From assembly GCF_000226095.1 (NCBI RefSeq), contig NC_016473.1, positions 3,100,001 to 3,164,000 on the forward strand: a DNA stretch of 64,000 nucleotides, in the 5' to 3' direction. Position 1 is the stretch's first letter, and each line of letters opens with the position of its first letter. Below are positions 15,193 to 57,698 of the stretch, in pieces. Source of the stretch: Thermothelomyces thermophilus ATCC 42464. Lineage: Eukaryota; Ascomycota; Sordariomycetes; Sordariales; Chaetomiaceae. Position numbers and translations under genes: made by a program. Under the pieces are notes generated by a model. That model did no database searches, was not told the DNA's origin, and saw only the letters and a program-made list of their open reading frames with translations.

Positions 15193-15258
15193 CGTTACTA
15201 TTACTCCCTTTGTTCTATTATAGCTCAGAACAGAGGTGATTTCAACCTTGACATCGAC

Positions 15259-21150: not shown

Positions 21151-21179
21151 CTAGATCGACTGTAGGCACTGGCTTGGAC

Positions 21180-21775
21180 AAAATGGCTAAGTCGGCCTCC
21201 GACAAATCTAGGCCTAAAGAGGACTAATTAAACGGGACGTTAGCACCCTAGGACTATACGTCACTAACAACGTGTACCTTGGAATCCTACACCCTCTGTT
21301 CTTCTGCCTTTATTTCCTCTACAGACTATATGCCTCGACGAAATAGCTCGGAACCCTGCTCCTTTAAGAAATGTTTCTGGTGACAAAGACAAGCCAATCG
21401 ACTAATAGCTATCTAAAGTTAAGTCTAAAGAACGAAAAGGGCCTCTTTAGCATCGGCCTCTTCTTATTCTATACGTTTCTATTTAGATATGATCTTTGTC
21501 ACTATAAAAGATTAGCTATAAACATTAAGGTAACAAACAAGGCTACAAACAAGTAGACACCACGTTAGAACTATTACAAGAACAACCCTAATATATATAC
21601 TTGCTATAGCAAGAAGAGCCTGATGCTATACGACAAGCTAAGTTCTGCTTAAAATACTACGAACATGGTATAACGTCTACGCTAGAAGAATCAATAAAAG
21701 AAGCAAGCGCGGCGCGCTATTAGGATGTCGAAGATCGATGCTTAGAGATATAATCTACTATCTTGTTAGTCACTA
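21180..21775 (-). pseudogene. Antisense accessory ORF of element C with a six-cysteine zinc-cluster pattern
   Basis: Opposite to gag-pol and just inside the 3' LTR, the minus strand holds a frame whose codons at 21665-21576 give C-x2-C-x6-C-x8-C-x2-C-x6-C. Three positions now read Tyr (TAT/TAC), which TGT/TGC gives after a G-to-A RIP change. The same spacing over the same 90 nt occurs in element G at 51265-51354, and the sequence just 5' of the frame also matches G. This is the spacing of fungal Zn(II)2Cys6 DNA-binding domains. The start codon is not identifiable and the end is approximate. A plus-strand frame in the same place also reads for about 90 codons, but lacks this support. Confidence 0.5.
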
Positions 21776-22243
21776 GCAGTATGGAAAAAGGGAAAAATTA
21801 CGAGGCATATATAGAGAAGGACATTAGCGCTATTTGAAACGGCCTAAGATAGGCTTTTAGGTCGAAAGCCTTAAAGGAGGGGCATCGTATTACGGAAATA
21901 TATATATAAGACGCTGCCTAAGCCGCCTCTCTAATAGACTAATAGGATAGCAGGAATGATAGGCTAATTAGGATAAGATCATACTTAGCAAGAAATGATC
22001 CTAGTAGAGGATTACTAGCTCACGATATAAGCTAGGTAAGCTAGTATAGAGGATCACTACGACTATTAATAATTCTAGGATTATATATATATATAGATAG
22101 TCACTCGTTATAGTAGACTCTAGGAGTTTACTAGTAATAGTAACCTATAATTATAGTACTTATACCAAGCATCGCTAATTACTATAAGAGACAACTCTAG
22201 TGTTATTATAAACCCTTTGGCTTTACCGAATCCCTTAGACGAC

Positions 22244-22697
22244 TGTGACCAACCTAACTTAGACTTCTTCTAAAAGGGTCTAGACGAAGGTGAATTAAGC
22301 AGGACGAGCGTATAGGTCGTCTAAGGGATTTGGTAAAGCTAAAGGGTTTATAATAACACTAGAGTTATCTCTTATAGTAGTTAGCGATGCTTAGTATAAG
22401 TACTATGATTATAGGTTGCTATTACTAATGAACTCCTAGAGTCTATTATAGCGAGTGATTATTTATATATATATATACTCCTATTAGTCGCTTATAGTCC
22501 TCTTTTAGTCTACCCTAGGATCGCCTTTGGTAGCTAGCTATCCTCTGCTATCTTTCCCTTTTTTAGCAATTGTTCGCCTATAGTAGCCCGTGCTCCCTAG
22601 CGATCCCGTATTAGCCTCGCTCTATACCTTTCTTGATTAGTAGCTCGTTTAGCCTACTATACCCCACCGGGTCGCGGTATATGGTTAGCTCGTGATA
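22244..22697 (-). repeat. 3' LTR of gypsy element D
   Basis: 454 bp, the same length as the 5' copy. It is more AT-rich than that copy, with mostly transition differences. Confidence 0.93.
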
Positions 22698-22787
22698 CGA
22701 TGCCCCCTCTTTAGGGCTTTCGACCTAAAAGCTTCTTATAACTTGTTTCAAATGCTACTAATACCCCCTTTTTTTTTTCTATAGGTA

Positions 22788-23495
22788 ATGTCTTTCTTCC
22801 GCTAGCTTCCTTCTGCTATAGCTAATTATATTCCTAGGAACTGTCGCGATCTTAAGCACGAGCGACATGCTATTACGATTAAGATTAAGCAAGAGGGTTA
22901 CAAGGTTACTATACCTTATAAGCGTTATTAGAATACGAAGCCACGAAAGCATTATATAATAATAGAGGGTTTAAACAAGTGTTAGAACTATATTTACATA
23001 GGCAAGAAGTATAATAGCCCGAACGTTACAGATGCCTATAGGTTCTTTGTTATTTTCCTTTATAGTCCTAGGTTACTAATTGTCTTAGTCCTTTCGAATT
23101 TGTCGGAGTAGGAGAAGGTTTCGAAAGAGATTACTAAGACTAAGGCACTTCTTGCTTAGACGCTAAGCCGTTTAAGTCAATTACGTCGTTTGTAGTAATC
23201 CTTATACGATTATAGTACCGAAGTTTTTCGTCGTGATATAGCTTGTCTAGAGGAAGAGGAAGAACTAGATACTCCTCTACCGATATTAGAGACGTAGACC
23301 CTTATAGGTTAGGCTTAGGCGTTAGGTGCTTTTGATATACTCGATTAGGAGTTAATTAGGTTAGGTCCTAGTCCTAATTCTAGCGGGTTCTCTTCTTTTT
23401 CTATCGGGGAATAGGCTTTAGAATCGGTTTTTATAGCTAGTTAGGATTCTACTAGTAGAATTACTCTAGTTTCTTAGGGTAACTTAGGTTCTTAA
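22788..23495 (+). pseudogene. Antisense accessory ORF of element D, 235 codons
   Basis: The frame starts with ATG at 22788 on the strand opposite gag-pol and runs 235 codons to TAA at 23493. Elements E and F hold the same frame with identical length. In-frame stops are TAG/TAA at positions read as Gln in a sibling copy or consistent with Gln. Codons at 22980-23012 give C-x2-Y-x6-Y, a C-x2-C-x6-C half cluster after Cys-to-Tyr changes. A charged helical region and a run of Glu (LEEEEELDTPLP) follow. It converges on the chromodomain end of pol. The function is unknown. Confidence 0.6.
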
Positions 23496-23499
23496 CTAG

Positions 23500-26400
23500 T
23501 TCCTATAAGTTATCTTCTAGTCTAAAATCAAGCTATTTAACTAGGTACTATAGTTTTCTATTAATAATATATAAATCTAGGATTTCTTTAACGTCTTATT
23601 CTTCCTCTTCGTCCTCTGCTTTGATGTACGTAGCAACCTTAGCGTTCTTTGACGCTAGTTTAAGAAGTGAAATATAAAAAATATCTGTCTATAGTCATAT
23701 AGATAACAATAACGATAGTCGGTAGTTAGATGTCGAGATTCGTTCTTTAATAACGAAGGGTCTAACCTTCTTAAAGTCTAGCTTTGTGCTTAGTCGTTTG
23801 GTTTGTAGGTTTTGTACAATTAGATAGACTTTGTCTCCCCTCTCTAGGCAAGGTCCTTTAAGCCTATATTTGTTATAGTAGTTCTTTATTCTGGTTCTAA
23901 CAAACTCGAGTTCCTTTTTAAGCTTCTTATATAGTATATATATTTGTTCTACTTTGACTACTACTCTTAGCACTATAACCTCTAGTCCTTGCCTAAGGTT
24001 TGCTTTATATCTATAGTTTGTAAAGAACGATATAACTTTAGTCATTTCTATTAGTGTTGTATTATAAGCGAGTTATACTATTGGTAATAGTATGACCTAG
24101 TCGTCTTGCTAGTAGTTGACATAAGAACGGAGGTATTGCTCGATAACTTGGTTTAGTCGCTCCGTTTGTCCGTCAGTTTATAGGTAGTATGCTGTTAATA
24201 GCTTACTATTAACGTTTAATCGTTATATTAACGTTTACTAGAACTTTAATACGAACTTAGTATCTCTGTCGGTGATCTATTCCTATAGCTAAGCGTATAC
24301 TAATACGACTTGCTAATAGATTACGTCTGCTAACTGTTCCGCTATCTAGGACTCCTTGTAGGGAAAGAAGTATGCCTATTTAGTTAGGCGGTCTACTATA
24401 GTGAGAATACTATTGTAGATTACCCCTGTAGCCGTATCTTTAGATTCTAGCAGTTTCGTAATAAAGTCTATCGTAACTAAACTCTATAGTTTGTTAGCTA
24501 TTAGCAGTAGCTAAAGTAGCCTATATAGCTTATATCGTACCATTTTGCTTCGATTACAGATATTATAGTTCTATATGACTTCTTTAACTCGTGCCATTAA
24601 CTGTGGGAAGTCGTAGTGTTTCTTGACTTATACGATAGTCTTTATAGCTCCTTTATATCCTCCGAGTTTCGACTTATAGAGGTCTTAAATCATTTATAGC
24701 TATTGATCTTTGTCGTAGATATACGCTTTACCTCGGTACCAGAGTTTCCTATCTTTTTCTTCCACTCCGTTAGGTATTACTAGTCTAAGTATTGCTTAAT
24801 ACTATACCTTGTTAATCCTTTCTTCTTGAAAGATTATATAATATTCTAGGAACGAGTCGAGTAGATCGTCTTCTATAGGTATCTATATTTTATAATATAG
24901 CGTTTCGTCTATTCGTTCCTTAAATAACGGTGGCGTTATTTCCGTTTATCCTTCTATATGATCTATTTATCGGCTTAAGGTGTCCGCTTGTACGTTCTCT
25001 TTACCCTTCTTATAGCGGATCTCAAAATTAAATTCCGTAAGGAATTCTACCTATTATATTTGTTATCCGTTAAGCTCCTTTATCATTATAAAATATCGTA
25101 AATTCTCATAATCTAAATATACTTATACTAGTTAGATTATATTACTAAGGTATAGTTGCTATTCCTTAAAAGCTTTAACAATTACAAGTAGTTCCTTATT
25201 ATAGATTAGATAATTAAGATATAGTCTATCGAGCTTCTTTAAAAAGAAGGCTATAGGATATAGCTTTCCTTATTCGTTTCGTTATTCTAGCTGTCCTCCG
25301 ATAGCGTAGTCTAAAGCGTCCGTTTCCACCTCAAATGGCTTCTTAGAGTCTAGTAACACTAGTACTAGATCTTTAGTAATAGCGTCACGGATCTACGTAA
25401 ATGCTTACTCGTGTTGCTCTTCCTATTAGAATTTAGCGTTCTTCTTAGTAAGTTCGTATAAAGGTCGTATAATTACTCTAAAGTTCCTAATAAATATCTA
25501 GTAGAAGTTTATAAACCTAATAAAACTTTGTACTTCCGTAACTAATGTCGGTTATAGCTAATTCTTAATAGCTTTAACCTTTAAAGGTTCCATCTAAATT
25601 TGTCCTAGGGATATCTTATATCCTAAAAACACTGTCTTCCTAACGTGGAATTCGCTCTTTTCCTTGTTAACTAATAGCTTATATATATATAATATGTCTA
25701 GTACTACTCTTACGTACTTCCGGTGTTTGTCTATCGTTTTAGAGAAGATAAGTATATTGTCAAGATAATATATTATAAATTTGTCAAGAAAGGGTCGGAT
25801 AGCTTGATCGATTAGGGCTTAGAACGTTACTAGCGCGTTTATAAGTCCAAATGGTATGACGAGGTACTTATGATAGCTATAGGGTATCCTAAAGGCTATT
25901 TTCTACTTGTTATCTTCTTTGATCTATAGGTAGTTATAGGCTAATGGTAAGTTAAGATATATGAAATATTAGGCTCCTACTAACTAATCTTAGAACTATG
26001 AGATTAGTAGTAATAGGTATTAGTTTTTCATAGTCTATTTATTAAGTTACTAATAGTCAATATATAATTATAGCTTTCTATCTTTCTTAGGTATAAATAG
26101 AATTAGGTAGCCTACTAGCAATATTAATAGGCAAATATATTCTCTTTAAAGATTTTCTTCTAAATATCGCTTAAGTTCTTTGTTCTATATCTAGCTCATA
26201 TAGTAAATCTTAAAGAACTTTAGTTATACTCCTTCCTTAAGCTTGATCTTGTAATCCTATAGGCCGTATTCTAGTAATTCTTCTAGATACTTCGGCTTAA
26301 ATGCTAGGTGTCCTTTATATTCCTTCGGTACTTCCCTAGTCTTATCTTGTCTCTCGGCTTTCTGATAGTATACGAACTTGGTTCCGTCTATAGCGATGCT

Positions 26401-29279
26401 AGCGATTTTTTCTATCTTAACCTACTACTCTAGTTATAATGCTCCGCATTCGTCAATAGAGAGAATAGCTATCGGCGGTTTAGCTCGTTCCTCCTGTCGT
26501 AACGTTACTATTATTATGCCACTTCTTCTAGAGTCTGTAGTAGTCTGCCTGCTACTGTCTGTCTCTTATAGTGGATCTGTAGGATATGCCTTCCTCTAAG
26601 CATCGTCTACTTACGATCCTTGCGTACTCCCTATCTTGCTAGTCAAATATAACTCTGTTTAGGGTTGTAGGTAGCTACTATTCTTCTAGCTAATATCTAG
26701 GTTATAATCTTTAGACTATAGTAATCCTAATATTATATCTTTATCATTACCTATATTTATAATACTAAATATAACTACTGTGGTTTTCCCTGCTATAGTG
26801 ATATCGATTAGTTCAGTCTCTCTATATACCTATTATATCGGAAATGGCCCTTTGACTATGCTATATTTCTACTTCATTCTCTAGGGTATCTATAGCTAAT
26901 TTATAAGTGTTAGCGAAATCAGGTTTATCTCTACTCTACTATCTATTAGCATAAGTATTTCGTGTTATTTCCATTATGCTATTATCTATAATTACTTATC
27001 TTACTACCGTCGCCTAAAGATTATAGCGATTTCCTATGTTTCTGCCGGGAGGTCTTAATATAGTGGTCTCTTACACTAGTTCCTCCTATACTACGTTACT
27101 ACTTGCTGCTATACGGGCGTTAATAGTTTTTGGGCCCCTTAGAGGGCCCTGACCCGTTTCCCAGGTTAGTGCTAACCTCTTCGGTTGTTCGGCTAATAGT
27201 AGCTTCGTCAATTGTACTTATTTCTATAAGCCATTAAGTACTAGTAGCTTCCTACCATTAGGTCCGTTTTACTTTCTATTATACGTACTATAGCTTTATC
27301 TAAAGCTCCTAGATCCGCGATTTCTTTTCATCTATATAGTAGAGGTAGTCGTTACTCTAGCACGAGTCTTATATGTCTCGTCCTATTCTATAGTACCTAG
27401 GCTAGGCTTGTTTTAGTACTACTATAATGCCTTTTAGATCGCAGGTTTCGATCTTCTAAAGCAATTCGGCTGCTCTATTTCCTATATTATAGACCTATTC
27501 CATAGGGTAGAGGCTTCTGTCTTTATTTCCTTGTCAGGTCAGCTAGTAATTATTTTCGAATTTATTATAAAAGTGGTATTAGCATTCGTGTAATATATAC
27601 TAGAACTAGGGCACTTATACATGTGCCTTGTGTCGTAAGTATAGTCGTATAGCGTCGCCTAGAAGATATTAGAATTCTTTTCCAAATCCTTCCTACTATA
27701 TATAGACTATAGGTACTTTAATGCTAAGGTAGGAGTGTTTCTTCTAGTAGTTTTCCTATATATGTTCGTCTTTTCTACGGTTTATATATATAAACTAGTA
27801 CTTTAGGTTCTATATGTCGTAGCTAAGTTACTAATTATTAAAATACTTGGCGTAGCTATTAAGCCTATTATATATTATAGGCTATTCTCCTTTAATGATT
27901 TCTATAATATATTAGAGTTCCCTTATCTTGTCCCTTATCTTATTACTCTACTAGGCAAGTTAAATTAAGCGTCTATTCCATTCGTATAGTTCTATATTAA
28001 GCCGGAAAACTTCGTTACGGTACTATTCGATTTATTCCTAGAGGAATAGAATATTAGGTCCAGGTCTTTTAATTCCTTAGGTATTAGTCGTCTATAATCT
28101 ATCCTACCTCTAGGTAACTATAAAACCTTACTGCCTTAAGGCTAGGAGAATCGAAATTGGTAGTATATATTCTCTTACCATGTCCTATTTGGCAGGACCT
28201 ATCTCTAGGTCCATAGTAACCAGTTCGGAGTACGGTGCTTGTTCGTCTTTACCGTTGCCGTCGTGTCTAAGACTGTCCATATTACTATCCCTATTTTTAT
28301 AGCTTGTAGCTACTACTTCGATAACATCCTTAGCGGTTTCGTTAATAGCTATAATTTTCTTTCTAGGGACTAGTTTCTAGTCTTTCTTTAGGCTTTAATA
28401 TTTTTGTTTGTAGTGTTCTTTCTTTCTATAGTTATAGTAAGTAACGTTAGACTTATCTTTGGTTATCTTCTTCTTATCTTACTTCTATATTATATCTATA
28501 TCTATAGCTCTAGGATATGTCCTATATAAGGTACTAACGTATACTTGTTTATTCTTATTATTAGCCTTGACTACGGTTCTATTTATCTGACCTTGTTTCT
28601 ACTACTCTCGTATATAGAGTCGATTATCAATCCTAATAGCCTATATAATATATTTATCTAGGGTTTTAGGCTAGTTATACTTATATAGCTTATCTTTAAC
28701 CTTTTCCTTTAAGCTATTATAGAATAGTTATATTAACGCTTTATCGTTAAGCTAAGACTTAAGTATGTCCTATCTAAACTATATAGTATAGGAGGTTGCT
28801 AACTTGGTCTATTAGAGATTAGTAAGTCTTTCTTATATATAAATCTTCTTGTCTTTATCGCTAAAAACCTTCCGAAGCTCTTCTTCAAACTAGTCATAGG
28901 ATCGAAAGACTGCCTATATAAACACGTCTTAGTCGTCTTCGTCTTCCTTAGTAAGATAGTCATTCTATATAGGCTTAAACTATCTAAGTGCCTTACCCTC
29001 TAGTCTTGTAGCTATATAGAAGACTTTAGCTTTATCGTTTAGAAACTTGTCGTCATTAAGCTAGAAGTAGGATTAGAGGTTTATTAGGAATCCTGTAAGA
29101 TCTTCCTTGGTTCCTCTATATTTGCTAGGTAGTTCGATCTTAATATAGCTCGCTTTAGCGCCTTCAAGTGCCTTGATCCGAGCTTAAGTAGCCTTATCTC
29201 TCTAGTCTAACTCCTAGATCTGCTAATAGAGTTGACCAAGCTAGGCAAGCAGCTATTCGGCTATAACGTTAGTAGTTAT
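23500..29279 (-). pseudogene. Element D gag-pol, RIP-inactivated
   Basis: The gag start codon at 29279-29277 is changed to ATA. Domains are in the same order as in element C. The RT YLDD equivalent lies near 25755-25770 and the chromodomain near 23518-23600. The integrase C-terminal tail is the longest open remnant, 116 codons at 24045-23695, and includes a GPF/Y-like segment (RPFVIKERIS). Stops are almost all TAG and TAA. Confidence 0.83.
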
Positions 29280-29345
29280 ATTAATATTAAGGTCGAAATC
29301 ACCTTTGTCCTAAACTATAATAGAACAAAGGGAGTGATAGCAATA

Positions 29346-29799
29346 TATGACGAACCTAACTTAGACTTCTTCTAAAAGGGTCTAGACAAAGGTAAATTGA
29401 GCGGGACGAGCGTATAGGTCGTCTAAGGGATTCGGTAAAGCCAAAGGGTTTACAATAATACTAGAGTTATCTCTTATAGTAGTTAGTAATACTTGGTATA
29501 AGTATTGTAATTATAGGTTACTATTATTAGTAAACTTCTGAAGTCTACTATAGCAAGTGATTATTTATATATATATATACTCTTATTGGTCGCTTATAGT
29601 CCCTTTCTAGTCTGCCCTAGGATCGCCTTTAGTAGCTAGCTATCCTCCGCTATCTTTCCCTTTTTTGGCAATTGTTCGCCTGTAGTAGCCCGCGCTCCCT
29701 AGCGATCCCGTATTAGCCTCGCTCCGTGCCCTTCTTGATTGGTGGCTCGTTTAGCCTGTTGCGCCCTACCGGGTCGCGGTATATGGTTGGCTCGTGATA
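29346..29799 (-). repeat. 5' LTR of gypsy element D
   Basis: 454 bp. It directly follows gag-pol in minus orientation and abuts the second ACGAC duplication. Confidence 0.93.
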
Positions 29800-30739: not shown

Positions 30740-31197
30740 TGTCACAAGCTAACCATATACCACGACCTGGCAGGGCATAGGAGGCTAAATAAGCCACCAA
30801 TCAAGAAGGGCACGAAGCAAGGCTAACATAGGATCGCTAGGGAGCGCAGGCTACCACAGGCGAACGATTGCCAAAAAGGGAAAGATAGCAGAGGATAGCT
30901 AGCTATCAAAGGCAATCTAAAGACAGGATAAAAGGGGACTATAAGCGATCGGCAGAAGTATATATATATATAAATAGCCACTCGTTATAGTGGACTCTAG
31001 GAGTTTACTAGTAATAGCAACCTAACCTACAATTATAGTACTTATACCAAGCATTACTAACTATTGTAGAAGACAACTCTAGTATTGTTATAAACCCTTT
31101 AGCTTTACTAAATCTCTTAGACAACCTATACGCTTGTCCCGCTTAATTTACCTCTATCTGAACCCTTTTAGAGGAAGTCTAAGTTAGGTTTATTACA
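30740..31197 (+). repeat. 5' LTR of gypsy element E
   Basis: 458 bp, starting TGTCAC and ending TTACA. The 3' copy has the same length. Confidence 0.93.
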
Positions 31198-34100
31198 CGT
31201 TGCTATTACTCCCTTTGTTCTATTATAGCTTAGAACAAAGGTAATTTCGACCTTGATATCGATATAGCTACTAACGTTACAGCCAAATAGCTGCTCGCCT
31301 AGCTTGGTTAACTCTAGTAGTAGATCTAGGAGTTAGACTAGAGAGACAAGGTTACTTAAGCTCGGATCAAGGAACTCGAAAATGGCGAAAAGCACTTATA
31401 GAAGCTAGTTAACAAGGCCTATACTAAAATCAAGGCACTTAAGGGCACTAAAGCAAGCTATATTAAGATCGAACTACCTAGCAAATATAGAGGAACCAAG
31501 GAAGATCTTATAGGATTCCTAACGAACCTCTGATCCTACTTCCGGCTTAATAATAATAAATTTCTAGATGACAAAGCTAAAGTCCTCTATGTAGCTATAA
31601 GATTAGAGGGTAAGGTACTTAGATAGTTTAAGCTTATGTAGAACGACTATCTTACTAAGGAAGACGAAGACAACCAAGACGCGTTTATATAGGTAGTCTT
31701 TTGATCCTATGACTAGTTTAAAGAAGAGCTTTAGAAGGTTTTTAGCGACAAAGACAAGAAGATTTATATATAAGAAAGACTTACTAATCTCTAATGAACT
31801 AAGTTAGTAGCCTCTTATACTATATAGTTTAGACAGGACATGCTTAAGTCTTAGCTTAATAATAAGGCGTTAATATAACTATTCTATAATAGCTTAAAGG
31901 AAAAGGTCAAAGACAAACTATATAAATATAACTAGCCTAAGACTCTAGACAAATATATTATATAGGCTATTAGAATCGATGATTAACTCTATATACAAGA
32001 GTAGTAGAAACAAGGTCAGATGAATGGAACCGCGGTCAAGGCTAATAATAAGAAAAAACGAGCATATATTAGCATATCGCATAGGACATATCCTAGAGCT
32101 ATAGATATAGACGTAATATAGAAGTAAGATAAGAAAAAGACAGCCAAAGATAAGTCTAATGTCACTTACTATAATTATAAAAAGAAAGAATACTATAAAC
32201 GAGAATGTTAAAGCCTAAAGAAAGACTAAAAACTAATTCCTAGAAAGGAAATTACGGCTATTAATGAAACTACTAAGGATGTTATCGAAGTAGTAGCTAC
32301 GAGCTACGAAAACAAGGATAGCGACACAGACAGTCTTAGACGCGACGGCAATAGTAAAGACAAATAAGCATTATACTCCGAACTGGTTACTATAGACCTA
32401 GAAATAGGTCCTGCCGAATAGGATACGGTAGGAAAATATATATTACTAATTTCGATTCTCCTAGCCTTAAGGCAATAGGGTTTTATAGTTACCTAGAGGC
32501 AGGATAGATTGTAGATAACTAATAACTAAGGAATCGAAAGACCTGGACCTAATGTTCTATTCCTCTAGGAACGAATCGAATGGTACCGTAACGAAGTTTT
32601 CTGGCTTAATATAGAACTATACGAACAGGACGGACGCTTGATTTGACTTACCTAGTAGAGCGATGAAATAAGGGACGAGATAAGGGAACTCCGATGTATC
32701 GTAGAAACTATTAAAGGGGAATAGCCTATAATATACGATAGGCCTGATAGCTATACCAAGTATTTTGACGATTAGTAACTTAGCTATAATATATAGAACT
32801 TAGAGTACTAGTTTATATATACGAACCATAAAACGAACAAACGTATATAGGAAAACTACTAGAAGAAATATTCTTACCTTAGCATTAGAGTACCTATAGT
32901 CTATATATAGTAGGAAGGATTTAGAAAAGAATTCTAATACCTTCTAGGCAACACTATATAACTATACCTACAATACAAGGCATATATATAAGTGCCCTGG
33001 TTCTAGTATATATTATACGAATGCTAATACCACTTTTACGACAAATTTGAAAATAATCATTAGCTGACCTGATAAGGAAATATGGACAGAAGCCTCTACC
33101 CTATGGAATAGGTCTATAATATAGGAAATAGAGCGGCTGAATTGCTCTGGAAAATCGAAGCCCGCGATCTAGAAGGTATTACGGTAGTACTAAAACAAGC
33201 CTAGCCTAGGTACTGCAGAACAGGACGAGACATATAGGACTCGTACTAAAGTAACGACTGCCTTTACTACGTAGACAAAAAGAAATCGCGGATCTAGGAG
33301 CTTTAGATGAAGCTATAGTACGTACGACGGAAAGCAGAACGGACCTAATAGTAGGAAGCTGCTAGCACTTAATAGCTTATGGAAATAAGTATAATTGACG
33401 AAGCCGCTATTAGCCGAATAACTAAAGAGGTTAGCACTAACCTAGGAAACGGGTTAGGGCCCTTCGAGGGGCCCGAAAACTATTAATGCCTATATAGCGG
33501 CAAGTAGTAGTATAGTACAGGAGGAACTAGCGTAAGAGACTACTATATTGAGACCTCCCGGTAGAAATATAGGAAATCGCCGCAATCTTTAGACGATGGC
33601 GGCAAGACAAGCGATTATAGACAATAGTATAATGGAAATAGTACGAAATGCTTATACTAGTAGATAGTAGAGCAAAGATAAACCTAATTTCGCCAATACT
33701 TGTAAATTAGCTATAGATACCCTAGAGAATAAAGCAGAAGTATAATATAGTTAAAGGGCTATTTCTAATATAATAGGTATATAGGGAGACTAAACCAATT
33801 AATATTACTATAGCAGGGAAAACTATAGTAGTTATATTTAATATTATAGATATAGGTAACGACAAAGATATAATATTAGGATTACTATAGTATAAAGATT
33901 ATAACTTAGATATTAGCTAGAAGAATAGTAGCTACCTACGACCCCAAATAAAGTCGTATTCGACTAGCAAGATAAGGAGTATACAAGGATCGCAAGCAGA
34001 CAATACTTAGGGGAAGGCATGTCCTATAGATTTACCGTAAGAGATAGATAGTGGCAAGCAGACTACTATAGACTCTAGAAGAAGCGGTATAACGACACCG

Positions 34101-36142: not shown

Positions 36143-36593
36143 TTGTGACGAACCTAACTCAGACTTCTTCTAAAAGGGTCCAGACAGAGGTAGGTGAAGC
36201 GGGACAAGCAGGCAGGTCGTCTGAGGGATTCGGTAAAGCCAAAGGGTTTACAACAACACTTAGAGTTGTCTCTCACAGTAATTAGCAATGCTTGGTATAA
36301 GTACTATGATTGTGATTGTTACCACTGGTGAACTCTAGAGTCCACCGTAACGAGTGACTATCTACATGTATATATACTCCTTCTGATCGCTTATGGCCTT
36401 CTTCGATCCTGTCCTTGGGTTGCCTTTGGTAGCTAGCTATCCTCTGCTATCTTTCCCTTTTGGCAATTATTCGCCTGTGGTAGCCTACGCTCCCTGGCGA
36501 TCTGTGTTAGCCTCGCTTTGTGCCCTTCTTGATTGGTGGCTTATCTAGCCCTCTACGCCTTACCGGGTCGCGGTATATGGTTGGCTCGTGACA
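36143..36593 (-). repeat. 3' LTR of gypsy element F
   Basis: 451 bp, beginning TGTGACGAAC on the plus strand and ending GTGACA. Both ends are intact. Confidence 0.93.
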
Positions 36594-36680
36594 TGATGCC
36601 CCCTCTTCAGGGCTTTTGACCCGAAAGCTTCTTATAACTTGTTTCAAATACTACTAACTCCCCCTTCTTCTTAATAGGTA

Positions 36681-37388: not shown

Positions 37389-37399
37389 CTGGTTCCTAT

Positions 37400-40300
37400 G
37401 AGTTGTCTTCTAGTCTAAAATTAAGCTATTTGACTAGGTACTATAGTTCTCTATTAATAATATATAAATCTAGAATTTCTTTGATATCTTATTCTTCTTC
37501 TTCGTCTTTTACTTTAATATATATAGCAACCTTAGCGTTTTTCGGTGCTAGTTCGAGAAGCAAAATATAGAAAACATCTATCTATAGTTATATAGATAAC
37601 GGTAACGATAGTCAGTAGTTAGATGTCGAAATTCGTTCTTTGATAATGAAGGGTCCGACCTTCTTAAAGTCTAGCTTCGTGCTTAGTCGTTTGGTTTGTA
37701 AGTTTCGTACGATTAGGTAGACTTTGTCTCCCCTCTCTAGGCAAGGTCCCTCGAGCCTATATTTGTTGTAGTAGTTCTTCATTCTGGTCTTGATAAACTC
37801 GAGCTCCTTTTTAAGCTTTTTATATAGTGCGTACATCTGTTCTACTTTGACTGCTGCTCTTGGCACTATGACCTCTAGTCCTTGCCTAAGGTCTGCTTTA
37901 TATCTATAGTTCGCGAAAAACGGTATGACTTTAGTCGTTTCTGTTAGCGTTATATTATAAGCGAGTTATACTATTAGCAATAATATGACCTAGTCGCCTT
38001 ACTAGTAGTTAACGTAAGAACAGAGATACTGCTTAATAACTTAGTTTAGTTGCTCTATTTGTCTGTCAGTCTATAGGTGATATGCTATTAACAGCTTGCT
38101 ATTAATGCCTAATCGTTATATTAATGCTTGCTAGAACTTCGACACGAACTTGGTGTCTCTATCGGTGATCTATTTTTACGGCTAAGCATGTACTAATGTA
38201 ACTTACCGATAGATTACGTCTGCTAACTATTCTGCTATCTAGGACTCCTTATAGGGAAAGAAGTATGCTTACTTAGTTAGGCGATCTACTATAGTAAGAA
38301 TACTATTATAGGTCACTCCTATAACTATATCCTTAGATTCTAGTAGCTTCGTAATAAAGTCCATTATAACTAAACTCTATAGTTTATTAGCTATTAGTAA
38401 TGGCTAAAGTAGCCTATATGGCTTGTATCGTACCGTTTTGCTCCGATTGTAGATATCGTAATTCCATACGACTTCCTTAACTCGTGCCGTTAACTATAGA
38501 AAGTCGTAATGTTTCTTGACTTGTGCGACAGTCTTCGTAACTCCTTTATATCCTCCGAGTTTCGACTCGTGGAGTTCTCGAATTATCCGTAGCTGTTAAT
38601 CTTTGTCGTAGATATACGCTTTGCCTTGGTACTAGAGTTTCCTATCTTCTTCTTCTACTCTATCAGGTACTACTAGTCCGGGTGCTACTTGATACTATGC
38701 CTTGTTAATCCTTTCTTCTTGAAAGATTATATAGCATTCTAGGAACGAGTTAAGTAGATCATCTTCTATAGGTGTCTGTATTTCGTGATATAGTATTCTG
38801 TCTGTCTGTTCCTTGAATAACGGTGGTGTCGTTCCTGTTTGTCCTTCTATATGATCTGTTTGTCGGCTTAAGATGTCTGCTCGTACGTTCTCTTTGCCCT
38901 TTTTATAGCAGATCTCAAAGTTGAATTCTACGAGGAATTCTGCCTATTGTATTTGTCGTCCGTTAAGCTCCTTCGTCGTCGTGAAGTATCGTAAATTCTT
39001 GTAATCCGTATATACTTATACCAGTTTAATTATACTGCTAAGGTATAGTCGCTATTCCTTAAAAGCTTTAATAATTATAAGTAGTTCCTTATTGTAGATC
39101 GGATAATTGAGACGTAGTCTATCGAGCTTCTTTAAAAAGAAGGCTATAGGATGTAGCTTTCCTTATTTATCTCGTTGTCCTAATTGTCCTCTGATGGTGT
39201 AGTCTGAAGCGTCTGTTTCTACCTCGAATAGCTTCTTAGGGTCTAGTAGTACTAGTACTAGATCTTTAGTAATGGCGTTACAGATCTACGTAAATGCTTG
39301 CTCGTATTACTCTTCCTATTAGAATTTAGCGTTCTTCCTAGTAAGTTTGTATAAAGGTCGTATGATCGCTCTAAAGTTCCTAATAAACATCCGGTAGAAG
39401 TTTGTAAATCCGATGAAGCTTCGTACTTCCGTGACTAACATTAGTTATAGCCAATTTTTGATAGCTTTAACCTTTAAAGGTTCTATCTGGATTTGTCCTA
39501 AGGATATTTCGTATCCTAAAAAGATTATCTTCCTAATATAGAATTTGCTCTTTTCCTTATTGACTAATAACTTGTATATATATAGCGTGTCTAGTACTAC
39601 TTTTATATACTTCCGGTGTTTATCTATCGTCTTAGAGAAGATAAGTATATTGTCGAGATAATATATTGTAAATTTGTCGAGAAAGGGTCGGATAGCTTGA
39701 TTAATTAGGGCTTAGAACGTTGCTAGCACGTTCGTAAGTCCGAATGGCATGACAAGGTACTTATAGTAGCTATAGGGCGTCCTAAAGGCCGTTTTCTACT
39801 CGTTACCTTCTTTAATCTATATATAGTTATAGGCTAATGGCAAGTCAAGACGTGTGAAATATTAGGCTCCTGCTAACTGATCTCGGAGCCGTAAGATTAG
39901 CGGTAACAGGTATCGGTTTTTCACAGTCTATTTGTTAAGTTGCCAATAGTCGACATATAACCGTAGCTTTCCGTCTTTCTTAGGCACAAATAGGATTAGG
40001 TAGCCTACTAGCGATGTCGACAGGTAGATATATCCTCTTCGAAGGTTCTCCTCTAAATATCGCTTAAGTTCTTCGTTCTATGTCTAGCTTATATAGTAAA
40101 TCTTAAAGAACTTTAATCGTGCTCCTTCCTTAAGCTTGATCTCGTGATCCTATGGGCCGTATTCTAGTAGTCCTTTTAAATGTTTCGGTTCGAATGCTAG
40201 GTATCCTTTGTATTCCTTTGGTACTTCCCTAGTCTTGTCTCGTCTCTTGGTTTTCTAGTAGTACGCGAACTTGGTTCTATCTATAGTGATGCTAGCGATT

Positions 40301-43235
40301 TCTCCTATCTTAACCTACTACTCCTATTATAGTGCTCTGCATTTGTTAACGGAGAGAATAGCTATCGGCGATTTAGCTCGTTCCTCCTGTCGTAATATCG
40401 ATGTCGTTATGCCGCCTCTTCTAGAGTCCGTAGTGGTCTGCCTACTACTATCCGTCTCTTACGGTAGATCTGTAGGATATGCCTTCCCCTAAGCATCGTC
40501 TGCTTGCGATCCTTGTGTGCTCCCTATCTTACTAGTTAAATACGACTCCATTCGGGGTCATAGGTAGCTACTATTCTTCTAGCTAATGTCTAGGTTATAA
40601 TCTTTATACTATAGTAACCCTAATATTATATCTTTATCATTGCCTATGTCTATAATGCTAAATATAACTACTATAGTCTTCCCTACTATAGTGATGTCGA
40701 TCGGTTCGGTCTCCTTATATACCTATTATATTGGAAATGGCCCTTTGACTATGCTATACTTCTGCTTCATTCTCTAAGGTATCTGTAGCTAATTTACAAG
40801 TATTAGCGAAATCAGGTTTATCTCAGCTCCACTGTCCACTAGTATAAGCATTTTATGCTGTTTCCACTATACTATTATCTATAATCGTTTGTCTTACCGC
40901 CGTCGTCCAAAGATTGCGGCGATTTCCTATATTTCTACTAGGAGGTCTCGATATAGTGGTCTCTTACGCTAGTCCCTCCTATACTATGCTATCACTCGCC
41001 ACTACGCGGGCGTTAATAGTTTCTAGGCCCCTCGAAGGGCCCTAACCCGTTTCCTAGGTTAGTACTAACCTCTTTAGTTATTTAGCTAATAGCGGCTTTG
41101 TTAATTATACTCATTTCCGTAAGCCATTGAGTGCTTGCGGCTTCCTACTACTAGGTCCGTTCTACTTTCCGTCGTACGTGCCATAGCTTTATCTGAAGCT
41201 CCTAAATTCGTAATTTCTTTTTATCTATATAATAGAGGTAATCGTTGCTCTAGCACAAGTCCTATATGTCTCGTCCGGTTCCGTAGTACCTAGGCTAGGC
41301 TTGTCTTAGAACTATCGTAATGCTTTCTAGATCATAGGCTTTGATCTTCTAGAGCAATTCGGCCGCTCTGTTTCCTACATTATAAACCCATTCTACAGGG
41401 TATAAACTTCTGTCCTCATTTCCTTGCCAGGTTAGCCAGTGATTATTTTCGAATTTGTCGCGGAAGTGGTATCGGCATTCATATGCCATATACTAGAACC
41501 AGGGCACTTGTATATATGCCTTGTATCAAGGGTACAATCGCATGGCATTACCTAGGAGGTATTGGAATTCTTTCCCAAATCCTTCCTATTATACATAGAC
41601 TATAAATACTCTAGTGCTAACATAGGAGTATTTCTTCTAGTAGCTTTCCTATATATGCTTGTCTTTTCTACGGTTCGCTTGTATAAACTAGTATTCTAGG
41701 TTCTATATGTCGTTACTAAGTTGCTAGCCGTCAAGATACTCGGCATAGCTATCAGGCCTATTGTATGTCACAGGCTATTCTCCTTTGATGGTTTCTATAA
41801 TACGTTAGAGTTCCCTTATCTTATCCCTTATTCCGTCGCTTTACTAGGCAAGTTAAATTAAGCGTTTATCCCATTCGCCTAGTTCTATGTTAAGCCGAAA
41901 AACTTCATTACAATACTATTTGATTCGCTCCTAGAGGAATAGAATATTAGGTCCGGGTCTTTCGATTCCTTAGGTATCGGTTATCCACGATCCATCCTGC
42001 CTCTATATAACCGTAAAGCCCCACTGCCTCAAGGCTAGGAGAATCGAAACTGGCGGTGCATATTCTCCTGCCATGTCCTATTTGGCAAGACCTATCTCTA
42101 GGTCTATAGTGACTAGTTCGGAGTGTAGTGCTTGTTTGTCTTTGCTGTCGCTATTGTGTCTAAGACTATCTATATCACTGCCCTTATCTTTGTAGCTTGT
42201 AGCTGCTACTTTGATGACGTCCTTGGTAGTTTCATCGATAGTTGTAATTTCCTTTCTAGGGGTTGGTTTCTATTCTTTCTTCGGGCTCTAGCATTCTTAC
42301 TTATAGTGTTCTTTCTTTCTATAGTTATAGTAGGTAATATTAGACTTATCTTTGGTTGTCTTCTTCTGGTCTTGCTTTTACGTTACGTCTATATCTATAG
42401 CTCCGAGATACGTCCTATATAAGGTACTGACGTATGCTCGCTTTTTCTTGTCGTTAGCCTTAACTATAGTTCTATTTATTTGACCTCGTTTCTACTACTC
42501 TCGTATATAGAGTCGATCATCGATTCTAATGGCCTATATAATATATTCGTCTAGGGTCTTAGGCCGATCATACTTATATAGCTTGTCCTTAACCTTTTCC
42601 TTCAAGCCGTTATAAAATAGTTATATTAATGCCTTGTCATTAAGCTAAGACTTGAGTATGTCCTATCTAAACTATATGGCATAAGAGGCTACTAACTTGG
42701 TCTGTTAAAGATTAGCGAGTCTTTCTTGCATATAAATCTTCTTATCTTTATTGCTAAAAACCTTCTAAAGCTCTTCTTCGAAACGGTCGTAAGATCGGAA
42801 GACTGCCTGTATAAACGCGTCTCGGTCGTCTTCGTCTTCCTTAGTAAGGTAGTCGTTCTATATAGGCTCAAACCATCTAAGTGCCTTACCCTCTAGTCTT
42901 ATAGCTATATAGAGGACTTTAGCTTTATCGTCTAGAAACTTATCGTCGTTAAGCCGGAAGTAGGATTAGAGGTTTATTAGGAATCCTACGAGATCCTCCT
43001 TGGTTCCTCCATATTTACTAGGTAGTTTAATCTTGATACGGCTCGCTTTGGCGGTCTCAAGCGTCTCGATTTTGGCATAGGCCTTGTTAACTAACTTCTA
43101 TAAGTACTTTTCACGGTTCTCGAGTTCCTTGATTCGAGCTTAAGCAGCCTTATCTCTCTAGTCTAATTCCTAGATTTGCTACTAGAGTTAACCAAGCTAA
43201 GTAAGCAGCTATTCGGCCGTAACATTAATAGCCAT
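37400..43235 (-). pseudogene. Element F gag-pol, RIP-inactivated
   Basis: The gag ATG at 43235-43233 is intact. The RT active-site equivalent lies near 39645-39665 and the chromodomain near 37400-37490. An open integrase-tail remnant at 37866-37612 (84 codons) includes KVGPFIIKERIS, the GPF/Y module seen in chromovirus integrases. Damage is lighter than in D but still total. Confidence 0.84.
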
Positions 43236-43301
43236 ATCGATATCGAGGTCAAAGTCACCTCTGTTCTAAACTATGACAGAACAAAGGGAGTAGTAATAAC
43301 G

Positions 43302-43751
43302 TGTAACGAACCTAACTTAGACTTCTTCTAAAAGGGTCCAGACGGAGGTAGGTGAAGCAGGATAAGTAGGCAGGTCGTCTAAGGGATTTGGTGAAGCCAA
43401 AGGGTTTATAACAACACTTAGAGTTGTCTCTTACAGTAATTAGCAATGCTTGGTATAAGTACTGTGATTGTAATTGTTACTACTGGTGAACTCCAGAGTC
43501 TACTGTAACGAGTGACTATCTACATGTATATATACTCCTTCTGATCGCTTATGGCCTTCTTTGATCCTGTCCTTGGGTCGCCTTTGGTAGCTAGCTATCC
43601 TCTGCTATCTTTCCCTTTTGGCAATTGTTTGCCTGTGGTAGCCTGCGCTCCCTGGCGATCCGTGTTAGCCTCGCTTTGTGCCCTTCTTGATTGGTGGCTC
43701 ATCCAGCCCTCTACGCCCCACCGGGTCGCGGTATATGGTTGGCTCATGACA
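43302..43751 (-). repeat. 5' LTR of gypsy element F
   Basis: 450 bp, one base shorter than the 3' copy. It abuts the second ACTTT duplication. Confidence 0.93.
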
Positions 43752-44723
43752 ACTTTATTACGAAACTACTAGAATCTAAGGATATAGCTATAGGGGTAAT
43801 CTACGATAGTATTCTTACTATAGTAGACTGCCTAACTAAATAGGCATACTTCTTTCCCTATAAGGAGTCCTAGATAGTAGAACAGTTAGCAGATATAATC
43901 TACTAGCAAGTTATATTAGTATATGCTTAGCTATAGGAATGGATTACTAATAGAGATACCAAGTTCATATCAAAGTTCTAGCAAGCGTTAATATAATGAT
44001 TAGGCGTTAATAGCAAGCTATTAACGGTATACTACCTATAGACTAATAGACAAACGGAACGACTAAACTAAGTTATCAAGTAGTATCTCTGTTCTTACGT
44101 TAACTACTAGTAGGATGACTAGGTTATACTATTACTAATAGTATAACTCGCTTATAATATAACGCTAATGGAAACGACCAAAGTTATACCATTCTTTATA
44201 AACTATAGATATAAAGCAGACCTTAGGCAAGGACTAGAGGTTATAGTGCCAAGAGTAGTAATCAAAGTAAAACAAATATATATACTATATAAGAAGCTTA
44301 AAAAAGAACTCGAGTTTGTTAGAACTAAAATAAAGAACTACTACAATAAATATAGGCTCAAGGGACCTTACCTAGAGAGGGGAGACAAAGTCTACCTAGT
44401 TATATAAAACCTACGAACCAAACGACCAAGTATAAAGCTAGACTTTAAAAAGGTCAGACCCTTCGTTATTAAAGAACAAATCTCGACATCTAACTACTAA
44501 CTATCGTTACCATCATCTATACGACTATAGATAGATGTTTTTCATATTTCACTTCTCGAACTAGCGCTAAAGAACGCTAAGGTTACTATATATATTAAAG
44601 CAAAGAATAAAGAGAAAGAATAAGACGTCGAAGAAATCCTAGATTTATATATTATTAATAGAGAACTATAGTACCTAGTTAAATAGCTTAATTTTAGACT
44701 AAAAGATAACTCATAGGAACTAG

Positions 44724-45431
44724 TTAAGAACCTAAGTTACCCTAAGAAACTAAAGTAGTTTTACTAGTAGAATCCTAACCAGCTATAAGAACCGGCTCTA
44801 AAGCCTATTCCCTAATAGAAAAAGAGGGGAACCTGCCAGAATTAGGACTAGGATCTAACCCGATCGACTCCTAATCGAGCATATCAAAAGTACCTAATGC
44901 CTAAGCCTGACCCGCGAGGGTCTGCGTCTCCGACATTAGCAGAGGAGTATCTAGTTCTTCCTCCTCTTCCAGACGAGCTATGCTACGATAAAAAACCTTG
45001 GTACTACGATTGTACAGGGATTACTACAAACGACATAATCGACTTAAATAGCTTAGTATCTAAGTAAGAAGTGCCTCGGTCTTAGTAATCTCTTTTAAAA
45101 CCTTCTCCTACTCTAATAAATTTAAAAGGACTAAGATAGTTAGTAACCTAAGACTACGAAGGAAAATAACAAGGAACCTATAGGCATCTATAACATTTAG
45201 GCTACTATACTTCTTACCTATATAAATATAGTTCTAACACTTATTTAAACCCTCTATTATTATATAACGCTTTTGCGGCTTTGTATTCTAATAATGCTCG
45301 TAAGGTATAGCGACTTCGTAACCTTCTCGCTTAATCTTAATTATAATAGTATATCGTTTACGCTTAAGATTGCAACGGTTCCTAGAAATATAATTAGCTA
45401 TAACAAAAAGAAGCTAGTAAAAGAAGGACAT
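44724..45431 (-). pseudogene. Antisense accessory ORF of element E, 235 codons
   Basis: ATG at 45431-45429 opens a minus-strand frame to TAA at 44726-44724, exactly 235 codons as in D and F. The half cluster at 45239-45207 reads C-x2-Y-x6-Y. An acidic run follows. Stops are more frequent than in F and are TAG/TAA. The absence of any indel relative to D and F supports former coding function. Confidence 0.6.
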
Positions 45432-45521
45432 TACCTATAGGGAAAGAAAAGAGGGTATTAATAGTATTTAAAACAAGTTATAAGAAGCTTTCGGGTCGAA
45501 AGCCCTAAAGAGAGGGCATCG

Positions 45522-45979
45522 TGTCACGAGCTAACTATATACCGCAACCCGGCAGGGCATAGGAGGCTAAATAAGCTACTAATCAAGAAGGGCACGAAGC
45601 GAGGCTGACATAGGATCGCTAGGGAGCGTAGGCTACTACGGGCAAACGATTGCCAAAAAGGGAAAGATAGCAGAGGATAGCTAGCTACCAAAGGCGATCC
45701 AAGGACAGGATAGAAGGGGACTATAAGCAATCGGCAGAAGTATATATACATATAAATAGCCACTCGTTATAGTAGACTCTGGGAGTTCACTAGTAATAGC
45801 AACCTAACCTATAATCATAGTACTTATACCAAGCATTACCGACTATTGTGGGAGACAACTCTAGTGTTATTGTGAACCCTTTGGCTTTACCGAATCCCTT
45901 AGACAACCTATACGCTTGTCCTGCTTAATTCACCTCCGTCTAAACCCTTTCAGAGGAAGTCTGAGTTGGGTTCGTCACA
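45522..45979 (+). repeat. 3' LTR of gypsy element E
   Basis: 458 bp, beginning TGTCACGAGC and ending GTCACA, both intact. Confidence 0.93.
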
Positions 45980-45984
45980 TATAT

Positions 45985-50560: not shown

Positions 50561-50625
50561 TGCCTAGAGAGTATCGATTATAGTATTTTGCTATTCTACT
50601 ACTGCTTAAAGGGAGTAGATAAGCT

Positions 50626-51045
50626 TATGACGAACCTAACTTAGACTTCTTCTAAAAGGGTCTAGATGGAGGTAGATTAGGCAAGACAGGCATATAGGTC
50701 ATCTGAGGGATTCGGTAAAGCCAAAGGGTTTACAATAACACTTTAGAGTTGTCTCTCATAGTAATCAGCAATGCTTAGTATAAGTACTGTGATTGTAATT
50801 GTTACCACTGGTGAACTCCTAGAGTCTACTATAACAAGTGACTATCTATATGTATATATAATCCTAGTGATCATTCCTAATCACGGTGATCGTAAGTGAT
50901 CGCATGGTAGTGATTACCCTGATTACTAGTAAGCGTAATGATTACTATGCTTCCTATGCTGTAATTGGTCCTTTCGTTCCTTTGACTTGATTGGCCCATT
51001 TGTGCCAGTGGCTTAGGCGGCATCTGTATGTATATTTCTATAATA
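50626..51045 (-). repeat. 3' LTR of gypsy element G
   Basis: 420 bp. The U3 part at about 50870-50950 has several TGATCA-like repeats. The distal end GTGACA is changed to ATAATA. Confidence 0.93.
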
Positions 51046-51174
51046 CGATGCCCTCCCTCCGAGGCTTTCGACCCGAAAGCCCTCTTTAGGCCGTCTCAAA
51101 TAGCGCTAACATCCCTTATATTCCTTGTACGTGTTTTTCTCCTTAGCCTCTTATTGCCCTTTATACTATTAGTT

Positions 51175-51785
51175 ATGCCGTCTGACGTATATAGATCCCT
51201 AGCATCTATTCGTTATAAGCGTTTAGCTTAGTTTATTTCCAATTACAGATTCGTAGTGATGGCGTGTTCTCATTGTATAGAGTATAACCAAGTATGTAAA
51301 ATGATTAAAAAATCTCGTCGCTACAAGGCTTACGTGTATTAGAATCGTGCTTACAATGGTTCTAGCGTTCTAGTTTCTTCTTATAAGTTTCCGTTTCCTT
51401 ACGAGAGTATATCTCTGATTGTAACGTAGTAGATCGTATTATATACAAGCAACGTCGTTTGAAGGCTAAAGAGAAAGAGGCCAAAGCCTTGCTACAAGAA
51501 TATTAATGCAAAGCTTCTGAGGCGTTAGCCTGTCTGACTTGGGTCTGTAAATAACGAGAGTTCCTAGTGGAGAAGGGGGCAGATATAGTTATACGGGGTT
51601 TGTCGAATCTAGATAAATTGGAGGCGGTAGAACAATAGGAATTAGGGGCCGTTATATAGCTTAACGGTGGCGTTAACGTTGTTAACTAGGGCGCTGTTTT
51701 CGGTTCTGTCCTAGATTTGCTTTTAGCTAATCCGGGTTCTACTAATAGAACTGTTCTAGTTTCTTAGGGCAGTTTAAATTCTTGA
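51175..51785 (+). pseudogene. Antisense accessory ORF of element G with a six-cysteine zinc-cluster pattern
   Basis: ATG at 51175 starts a frame opposite to gag-pol. Codons at 51265-51354 give C-x2-C-x6-C-x8-C-x2-C-x6-C, with the last three Cys now Tyr (TAC). The first half reads CSHCIEYNQVC. A charged, probably coiled-coil part follows (KAKEKEAKALLQEY). At least one frame change is needed to reach the final TGA at 51783, so a small indel is likely. The tail near the end resembles that of the D/E/F antisense ORFs (SQGSLNS versus SQGNLGS if TAG was CAG). The six-Cys spacing equals that of fungal Zn(II)2Cys6 regulators. DNA binding is inferred, not shown. Confidence 0.58.
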
Positions 51786-51794
51786 CGGGTTCCT

Positions 51795-57632: not shown

Positions 57633-57698
57633 ATCGATATTAAGGTCAAAGTCACCTCTATTCTAAACTATAATAGAACAAAGGGAGTGGTAACAACG

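What the first reader, a model, noticed from the sequence alone, without database searches (positions are those of the whole stretch)
21576..51354. Antisense gene with exact Zn(II)2Cys6 spacing inside chromoviruses C and G
On the strand opposite gag-pol, just inside the 3' LTR, C (21665-21576, minus) and G (51265-51354, plus) both give C-x2-C-x6-C-x8-C-x2-C-x6-C over 90 nt. Different Cys positions have become Tyr in the two copies, each explained by one G-to-A change. Flanking leader sequence is also shared. Zn(II)2Cys6 is the hallmark of fungal transcription factors; finding it antisense in a retroelement suggests a self-encoded regulator. I do not know a described system of this kind.
Basis: partly seen in the sequence, partly recalled or inferred. 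Interest (0 to 1): 0.9.

Follow-up and report, generated by a model that had tools for sequence, protein, structure and literature searches.

The report
Swappable antisense gene in fungal retrotransposon
A fungal jumping gene carries, on its backward strand, a small split gene that looks like a DNA-binding switch, and copies that are otherwise the same carry at least five very different versions of that gene, usually with a matching promoter, as if the element keeps swapping its own control unit.

Summary
The motif is real but overstated at the given coordinates: Cys 4 and 5 are Tyr in both copies. In 63 of 63 compared copies (three types, 21 rows each) all six columns are only TGY or TAY, as RIP would leave them. 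The same genome (Thermothelomyces thermophilus) holds at least 18 un-RIPed copies of a fourth version. There the gene is intact: two exons, a 66-80-nt intron, 196 aa, six Cys, then a coiled coil, antisense between pol and the 3' LTR of a chromovirus. LTRs are 99.8-100% identical in 6 of 6 whole elements read.

New here: leaving out transitions, gag-pol and R-U5 of window elements C, D, F, G and the intact element are nearly one sequence (11-27 transversions in about 5,900 nt). The block antisense gene + U3 is replaced. At least five versions ride on one backbone; some are closer to other species' versions than to each other.

Best reading: a self-encoded zinc-cluster regulator in an exchangeable control cassette. 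Regulation is inferred. Antisense genes at this place are known (plant aORF-3R, Boty brtn).

The parts
21576..21665 (-). six-Cys columns of the antisense gene in element C (C-x2-Y-x6-C-x8-Y-x2-Y-x6-C as it stands)
51265..51354 (+). six-Cys columns of the antisense gene in element G (C-x2-C-x6-C-x8-Y-x2-Y-x6-Y as it stands)
51175..51382 (+). G antisense gene, exon 1 (leader and zinc cluster)
   Evidence: 208 nt, the same length as in the intact version
51383..51429 (+). G antisense gene, intron of 47 nt: 5' site RTAAGT in 21 of 21 rows, CTRAY branch-like site in 20 of 21, 3' YAG in 20 of 21
51430..51785 (+). G antisense gene, exon 2 (coiled coil and tail), up to the stop homologous to the intact version
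21551..21755 (-). C antisense gene, exon 1 (5' end approximate, set by homology; no ATG stands there)
21502..21550 (-). C antisense gene, intron of 49 nt (predicted from splice-like sites and the change of frame; CTAAY in 21 of 21 rows, 3' AG in 18 of 21)
21101..21501 (-). C antisense gene, exon 2 (coiled coil and tail; 3' end approximate)
22917..23012 (+). F-type six-Cys columns in element D (spacing x2-x8-x8-x2-x6)
36810..36905 (+). F-type six-Cys columns in element F
45207..45302 (-). F-type six-Cys columns in element E
21150..22085 (.). exchangeable block in element C: pol tail, antisense gene, polypurine region, U3 (ends approximate)
50858..51745 (.). exchangeable block in element G (ends approximate)
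22478..23430 (.). exchangeable block in element D (ends approximate)
36377..37320 (.). exchangeable block in element F (ends approximate)
14765..22243 (+). element C, chromovirus relic; its 3' LTR is cut short where D begins (ends approximate)
22246..29665 (-). element D, chromovirus relic (ends approximate)
30740..45980 (+). element E, chromovirus relic, interrupted by element F (ends approximate)
36144..43660 (-). element F, chromovirus relic nested in E (ends approximate)
50608..58111 (-). element G, chromovirus relic; LTRs 50608-51038 and 57680-58111, 91% identical

Best explanation
One very abundant Ty3/gypsy chromovirus of Thermothelomyces thermophilus carries, antisense between pol and the 3' LTR, a two-exon gene for a protein of about 196 aa: leader, Zn(II)2Cys6-spaced cluster, long coiled coil, acidic tail with a V-D-W motif in most intact relatives. 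SHOWN: the gene, its intron signals, intact copies in recent elements, the replacement of the block antisense gene + U3 between copies whose backbone is otherwise the same apart from RIP-type transitions, and at least five versions of that block. INFERRED: the gene is transcribed from the 3' LTR side and spliced; the protein dimerises by the coiled coil, binds DNA in U3 of its own family and adjusts transcription of the genomic RNA. Because gene and U3 sit side by side at the 3' end of the RNA, one template switch near the end of pol during reverse transcription would exchange regulator and target together, and both new LTRs would carry the new U3. Diverse cassettes would persist because a newcomer escapes control by resident copies, as heteroimmune phages do.
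Against: No transcript, splicing or binding data were seen. PF00172 cut-off not met in any member scanned. CGG triplets, the usual zinc-cluster half-site (recalled), are not enriched in the LTRs. Version J has its own antisense gene but a U3 about 95% alike version C at purine/pyrimidine level, which goes against a strict regulator-target pairing; C and G U3s also align, at about 73%. H and G share the enriched pentamer and much of the second half of the cluster, so different versions need not differ in DNA target. The codon-position test is significant for G-H only (C-H P 0.082, C-G P 0.08). The pentamer was picked after looking at H, and C3, D and F LTRs do not show it. The 20 anchor loci are those nearest to element C's pol end, not a random draw.
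Confidence: 0.55

Rival explanations
1. The protein is an accessory factor of the replication cycle (nuclear entry, integration-site choice or nucleic-acid chaperone) rather than a transcription regulator; the block varies because it tracks host factors.
For: Chromovirus with chromodomain; a review proposes such accessory roles for plant antisense ORFs (PMC7264820, section 7 read).
Against: U3, a promoter region, differs together with the gene in four of the five versions, which an accessory factor would not need.
Confidence: 0.2
2. The function lies in the antisense RNA (double strand, small RNA), and the frame is incidental.
For: Antisense transcripts of retroelements can act this way (PMC7264820, section 8 read). 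Frame length alone is not unusual: base shuffles of the same DNA gave longest antisense frames of mean 89 and up to 197 codons.
Against: Six Cys columns kept over divergent versions, an intron that joins the frames, protein-level relatives in other species, third-position excess for G-H.
Confidence: 0.08
3. A host zinc-cluster gene was captured, and the elements only carry it as cargo; block versions differ because different captures happened.
For: Two-exon structure, architecture typical of fungal regulators.
Against: All five versions have a six-column cluster (one gap x8 for x6 in F), a following coil in exon 2, and a change of frame or an intron at the matching place (resolved in four). 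Gene models in Corynascus similis and Chaetomium globosum run on into the antisense of pol. A capture through the genomic RNA would be in sense and without intron. I made no separate search for a host gene of the family outside elements.
Confidence: 0.1
4. The block is merely a tolerant region that exchanges freely by template switching; no selection for difference, and the protein regulates weakly or not at all.
For: The replication cycle alone would swap everything from the crossover to R as a unit. Recombination within LTR-retrotransposon families is reported as frequent (PMC5668417, search listing only).
Against: Every version keeps a zinc-cluster plus coil gene. Versions H, F and G are not one clade among relatives from other species (p-AU 1.6e-8), so old lineages coexist on one young backbone.
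Confidence: 0.3

Closest known systems
Boty-like elements of Botrytis cinerea with antisense gene brtn (Zhao et al. 2011, not held; known here through passages of PMC7264820, PMC8365987, PMC4227169)
   Same: Fungal Ty3/gypsy element with chromodomain and an additional antisense gene between pol and 3' LTR.
Plant antisense aORF-3R (Grande gene23, RIRE2, Retand TRP28; PMC7264820 abstract and sections 5-8, PMC11963269 passages)
   Same: Same place and orientation, kept in most copies; proposed nuclear or DNA-binding role; Grande has its own antisense promoter.
   Different: No zinc cluster is reported in what was read; no versions swapped on a constant backbone reported in what was read.
HTLV-1 HBZ (mostly recalled; mentioned in PMC11963269 passages, HTLV antisense promoter in PMC7264820)
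   Same: Antisense gene with its promoter in the 3' LTR, nuclear product; spliced and a coiled-coil dimeriser (recalled).
   Different: bZIP (recalled), not zinc cluster; retrovirus; no sequence relation tested.
Gal4/Hap1/Put3 Zn(II)2Cys6 proteins (PF00172)
   Same: Cys spacing, cluster followed by coiled coil, weak fold matches only to this family.
   Different: Below PF00172 cut-off; in the intact version the basic run lies in the second half of the cluster; only about 196 aa.
Ty1 copy-number control (PMC7055915, abstract)
   Same: Self-encoded control whose specificity depends on the subfamily and which moved by horizontal transfer and recombination.
   Different: Acts through a Gag-derived factor on particles; not a DNA-binding protein.
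Lambdoid phage immunity regions (recalled)
   Same: Repressor gene and its target sites exchanged as one block between otherwise like genomes.
   Different: Here regulation is not shown; exchange would go through reverse transcription.

Membership tests
Chromovirus (Ty3/gypsy with chromodomain) | gag, PR, RT, RNase H, integrase and C-terminal chromodomain between LTRs | tested here: met
   for intact L079 only (rve core 30.4 bits, just under its 32.6 cut-off; integrase H2C2 and Chromo above theirs); backbone of window elements C, D, F, G is the same
PF00172 Zn_clus | profile score at or above curated cut-off (21 bits) | tested here: not met
   listed scores 8.7 (P0001), 8.4 (P0016), 13.3 (P0021), 12.1 (P0027); not listed for the other ten members scanned, P0013 and P0007 included
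PF00172 Zn_clus | C-x2-C-x6-C-x(5-12)-C-x2-C-x(6-8)-C (pattern recalled) | tested here: met
   18 of 18 intact copies; 6 of 8 proteins spanning the cluster have all six Cys, P0019 has Tyr at two and P0023 at one (F-type P0001 and T. thermophilus fragments left out); F type has x8 between Cys2 and Cys3
PF00172 Zn_clus | basic residues between Cys2 and Cys3 (recalled) | tested here: inconclusive
   absent in P0013, P0007, P0016 (basic run is between Cys5 and Cys6 there), present in P0021 and in F-type P0001
PF00172 Zn_clus | zinc-cluster fold | tested here: inconclusive
PF12511 DUF3716 | profile score at or above 22 bits | tested here: not met
   15.7 bits for P0001; not listed for the other 13 proteins scanned
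[quoted passage not shown]
   20 of 20 sampled loci carry one of five versions, most of them RIP-broken
brtn of Boty | sequence homology to BRTN | not testable with these tools
   paper not held; no sequence available
Phage-type immunity region | product acts specifically on the neighbouring control sites | not testable with these tools
   needs binding or reporter data

The most novel reading that the evidence does not exclude
A retrotransposon immunity cassette: a spliced antisense zinc-cluster regulator and its U3 target travel as one exchangeable block on a single chromovirus backbone, with several old, trans-specific versions kept because each escapes control by the others.
Probability: 0.3. 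Interest if true: 0.95.

Novelty: new variant of a known kind. Interest (0 to 1): 0.82.

Why it matters
Antisense genes next to the 3' LTR recur in plant and fungal elements, and PMC7264820 states that their function is not known. Here a young family with intact copies makes the question testable: the protein has a recognisable DNA-binding architecture, its likely target lies next to it, and nature supplies at least five versions on one backbone. An antisense gene can keep an intron through retrotransposition, because the packaged RNA is the other strand; that is seen here in 18 of 18 recent copies. If gene and U3 prove to be a matched pair, LTR retrotransposons would have a counterpart of phage immunity regions, with consequences for how element families coexist and escape control. 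RIP-insensitive (purine/pyrimidine) comparison also proved a useful way to see recombination through heavy RIP.

Tried and rejected
Chance pattern: rejected. Long antisense frames as evidence by themselves: rejected, shuffles do as well. Known domain by Pfam: nothing above cut-off; most rows were coiled-coil noise. Solved-structure sequence search with P0013: mostly coiled-coil matches, best E 0.033. IMG/VR scans with P0013 and an RT piece: no relatives. CGG sites in LTRs: not enriched. J-version intron: frames differ but no convincing splice pair found. A first codon-position run misplaced a gap and was redone. A first tree had version C in the wrong frame and was redone without J and one metagenome row. 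Papers on a zinc cluster antisense in an LTR retrotransposon: none recognised among the titles and abstract starts listed (20 of 129; 15 of 387; 10 of 14; 15 of 21; 12 of 12); DUF3716 gave no paper. A swapped regulator-promoter block: none recognised in the lists (15 of 41; 10 of 86). Library coverage is partial, so this is not proof of absence.
Full report
1. What is at the coordinates. The window is a stack of nested, AT-rich (mostly 27-41% GC) LTR elements between gene-like DNA of mostly 50-65% GC. The two 90-nt stretches translate to C-x2-Y-x6-C-x8-Y-x2-Y-x6-C (C, minus) and C-x2-C-x6-C-x8-Y-x2-Y-x6-Y (G, plus), with stops. So the finding's text overstates: Cys 4 and 5 are Tyr in both. The window lies at G000:C2:3100001-3164000. 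Two proteins found later are named Thermothelomyces thermophilus ATCC 42464 and sit on contigs of the same lengths as two of G000's, so the host is that fungus.

2. Not chance. From the own genome I took 20 further copies of each of the C, G and F types, the first 20 non-window places listed. With the window copy, 21 of 21 rows of each type have only TGY or TAY at all six columns. Cys 4 is never intact in C or G rows, nor Cys 3 in F rows. No other placement of the spacing over the aligned region does as well. TGY to TAY is C-to-T in a CpA on the other strand, the usual RIP change (established knowledge). In the F type the spacing is x2-x8-x8-x2-x6, and elements D, E and F of the window carry it.

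3. A two-exon gene. In C and G the cluster and a following heptad-like stretch lie in different frames in all rows. A short intron explains it: G 51383-51429 (5' RTAAGT in 21 of 21; branch-like CTRAY in 20 of 21; 3' YAG in 20 of 21), C 21550-21502 (CTAAY in 21 of 21, 3' AG in 18 of 21, a looser 5' site), F type 51 nt with GTAGGT and TCTTAG in the two weakly RIPed loci L085 and L086. The J version has a like change of frame, but I could not name its splice sites.

4. Intact copies. Protein searches gave P0013 (196 aa), which has the exact six-Cys spacing and joins the two frames as predicted. Its DNA is in the same genome: 18 copies without stops among 150 scored of 985 first-look candidates, so at least 18. 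I read those 18: exon 1 identical in 18, exon 2 in 17, intron 66-80 nt, spliced frame open in all, six Cys in all. The introns are identical but for one T-run of 19-33. Read through, 14 of 18 introns hold in-frame stops and the other 4 shift the frame, so none could give the protein unspliced. Six of the 18 were fetched whole: LTRs of 448-451 nt, 100% identical in five and 99.8% in one, gag 767 aa and pol 1264 aa open in all six. Pfam gives gag, zinc knuckle, protease, RT, RNase H, integrase and chromodomain; I scanned only L079. The antisense gene starts about 130 nt inside the 3' LTR and its end overlaps the end of pol by about 120 nt. Twenty RIP-degraded copies of the same version, picked, show 0-5 purine/pyrimidine changes over 155 codons but many Cys-to-Tyr codons, which shows directly how C and G came to look as they do.

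5. Relatives. The family occurs in Chaetomium globosum (CHGG_04275), Canariomyces notabilis, Corynascus similis, Apiosordaria backusii, Parathielavia appendiculata and unnamed metagenomes. Of eight proteins that span the cluster (P0013 included; F-type P0001 and other T. thermophilus fragments left out), six have all six Cys; P0019 has Tyr at two places and P0023 at one. The C-terminal ends of one Corynascus and one C. globosum model match the antisense of the pol end (E 1.6e-12 and 7.9e-5, without composition correction), so the same arrangement holds there. The third search scored only the 8000 best candidates of its first step, so the range is a lower bound.

7. The unexpected part. RIP makes only transitions, so I counted transversions. 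Against the intact element, C, D, F and G have 21, 27, 11 and 13 transversions in 5,868-5,931 aligned nt from gag to the end of pol, and 3, 5, 1 and 3 in R-U5. Transitions number 1,023-1,329, mostly in the RIP direction. These are one backbone. From the end of pol to the U3/R border they have 110-118 transversions in 769-785 aligned nt, and 90-106 of the 875 positions stay unaligned. The rate, 14-15%, is near what the same aligner gives for reversed sequence (14-18%), though the alignment scores are about twice as high (438-607 against 197-244), so the versions are distant relatives. Outside this block and the U3 copy in the 5' LTR no 200-nt window exceeds 3 transversions, except the clipped end of C's 3' LTR; D lacks 63 nt in gag. 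The weakly RIPed F-type loci L085 and L086 share the pol backbone at least from 4,070 to 6,070 of the element. E matches F from the pol end through the LTR part compared.

8. How many versions. A pol-end anchor gave 864 first-look candidates. All 20 have the backbone anchor at 99.5-100% purine/pyrimidine identity. Versions: H 9, C 5, G 2, F 1, and 3 of a fifth version, J, whose antisense frame in L138 again shows the spacing as C-x2-C-x6-Y-x8-Y-x2-C-x6-Y. Antisense type and U3 type agree in 17 of 17 loci of H, C, G and F. J is the exception: new gene, U3 about 95% like C's. First-look counts per version are H 220, F 201, G 179, C 175, J 60, sum 835. These counts are unscored candidates and only roughly comparable with 864.

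9. Age of the versions. In a tree of 21 exon-2 proteins F goes with Parathielavia (99/91) and a metagenome sequence, H with Canariomyces (81/90, open); one clade of H, F and G is rejected (p-AU 1.6e-8; the group was named after a first tree). G and C rows are RIP-damaged, long and unlike in composition, so the firm part is H against F. Old, trans-specific versions thus sit on one young backbone, which needs recombination rather than mutation.

10. Selection and target. Purine/pyrimidine differences G-H by antisense codon position are 32, 20, 50 (P 0.00075); C-H 44, 34, 51 (P 0.082); C-G 36, 33, 46 (P 0.08). This supports protein-level constraint for G-H and is inconclusive for C. LTR comparison: R-U5 aligns across all types; H's U3 aligns with none of the others, C and G U3s align at about 73%, D and F align with each other. 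The pentamer ATCAC/GTGAT ranks 2 of 512 in the H LTR (7 seen, 1.4 expected), 1 or 2 in G LTRs, 6 in C5, 64 and 113 in D3 and F5; C3 has one copy; it is not enriched in H gag-pol (11 against 13.1). It was chosen after looking at H, so only G and C count as tests. CGG is not enriched.

11. Mechanism. Likely steps: antisense transcript from the 3' LTR side (inferred); splicing (supported by sequence and frame, not by RNA); zinc-cluster dimer (inferred from model and architecture); binding to U3 and control of the genomic RNA (inferred); exchange by a template switch near the pol end, after which both LTRs carry the new U3 (inferred from the known replication cycle, and fitting both block borders). 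Why versions differ is open: escape from control by residents is my preferred reading; free exchange without selection is the main rival.

12. Known or new. [quoted passage not shown] PMC11963269, PMC8365987 and PMC4227169 passages read; Zhao et al. 2011 not held). Self-encoded control with subfamily specificity and exchange is known for Ty1 (PMC7055915, abstract). I recognised no paper on a zinc cluster in such a gene or on a swapped regulator-promoter block (searches; listed titles and abstract starts only; the library is partial). I file it as a new variant of a known kind; the immunity-like reading would be categorically new if shown.

Noticed in passing
window 9441-9566 and 61153-61278: A 94% identical direct repeat of at least 126 nt lies at both edges of the AT-rich block, 51.7 kb apart, possibly the ends of the outermost insertion.
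   Followed up: partly
T. thermophilus gene models P0017, P0022, P0024-P0026, P0030, P0034, P0038, P0039: Several annotated MYCTH proteins look like fragments of this antisense gene, some apparently joined by modelled introns around RIP-made stops; probably annotation artefacts (by eye).
   Followed up: no
protein P0005: A metagenome relative of this fungal antisense protein is named Tfp pilus assembly protein PilO by its source, probably because of the coiled coil.
   Followed up: no
intron of the antisense gene in L079-L084, L087-L098: The intron's T-run differs between copies (19-33 T) while the rest of the intron is identical in 18 of 18, so it could help tag single recent insertions.
   Followed up: yes
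L079 736-742 and 8337-8345: The intact element is flanked by what looks like a 4-bp target duplication (TAGA).
   Followed up: no
window 1-64000: ARAGORN, run with the bacterial code, found no tRNA gene in the window.
   Followed up: yes
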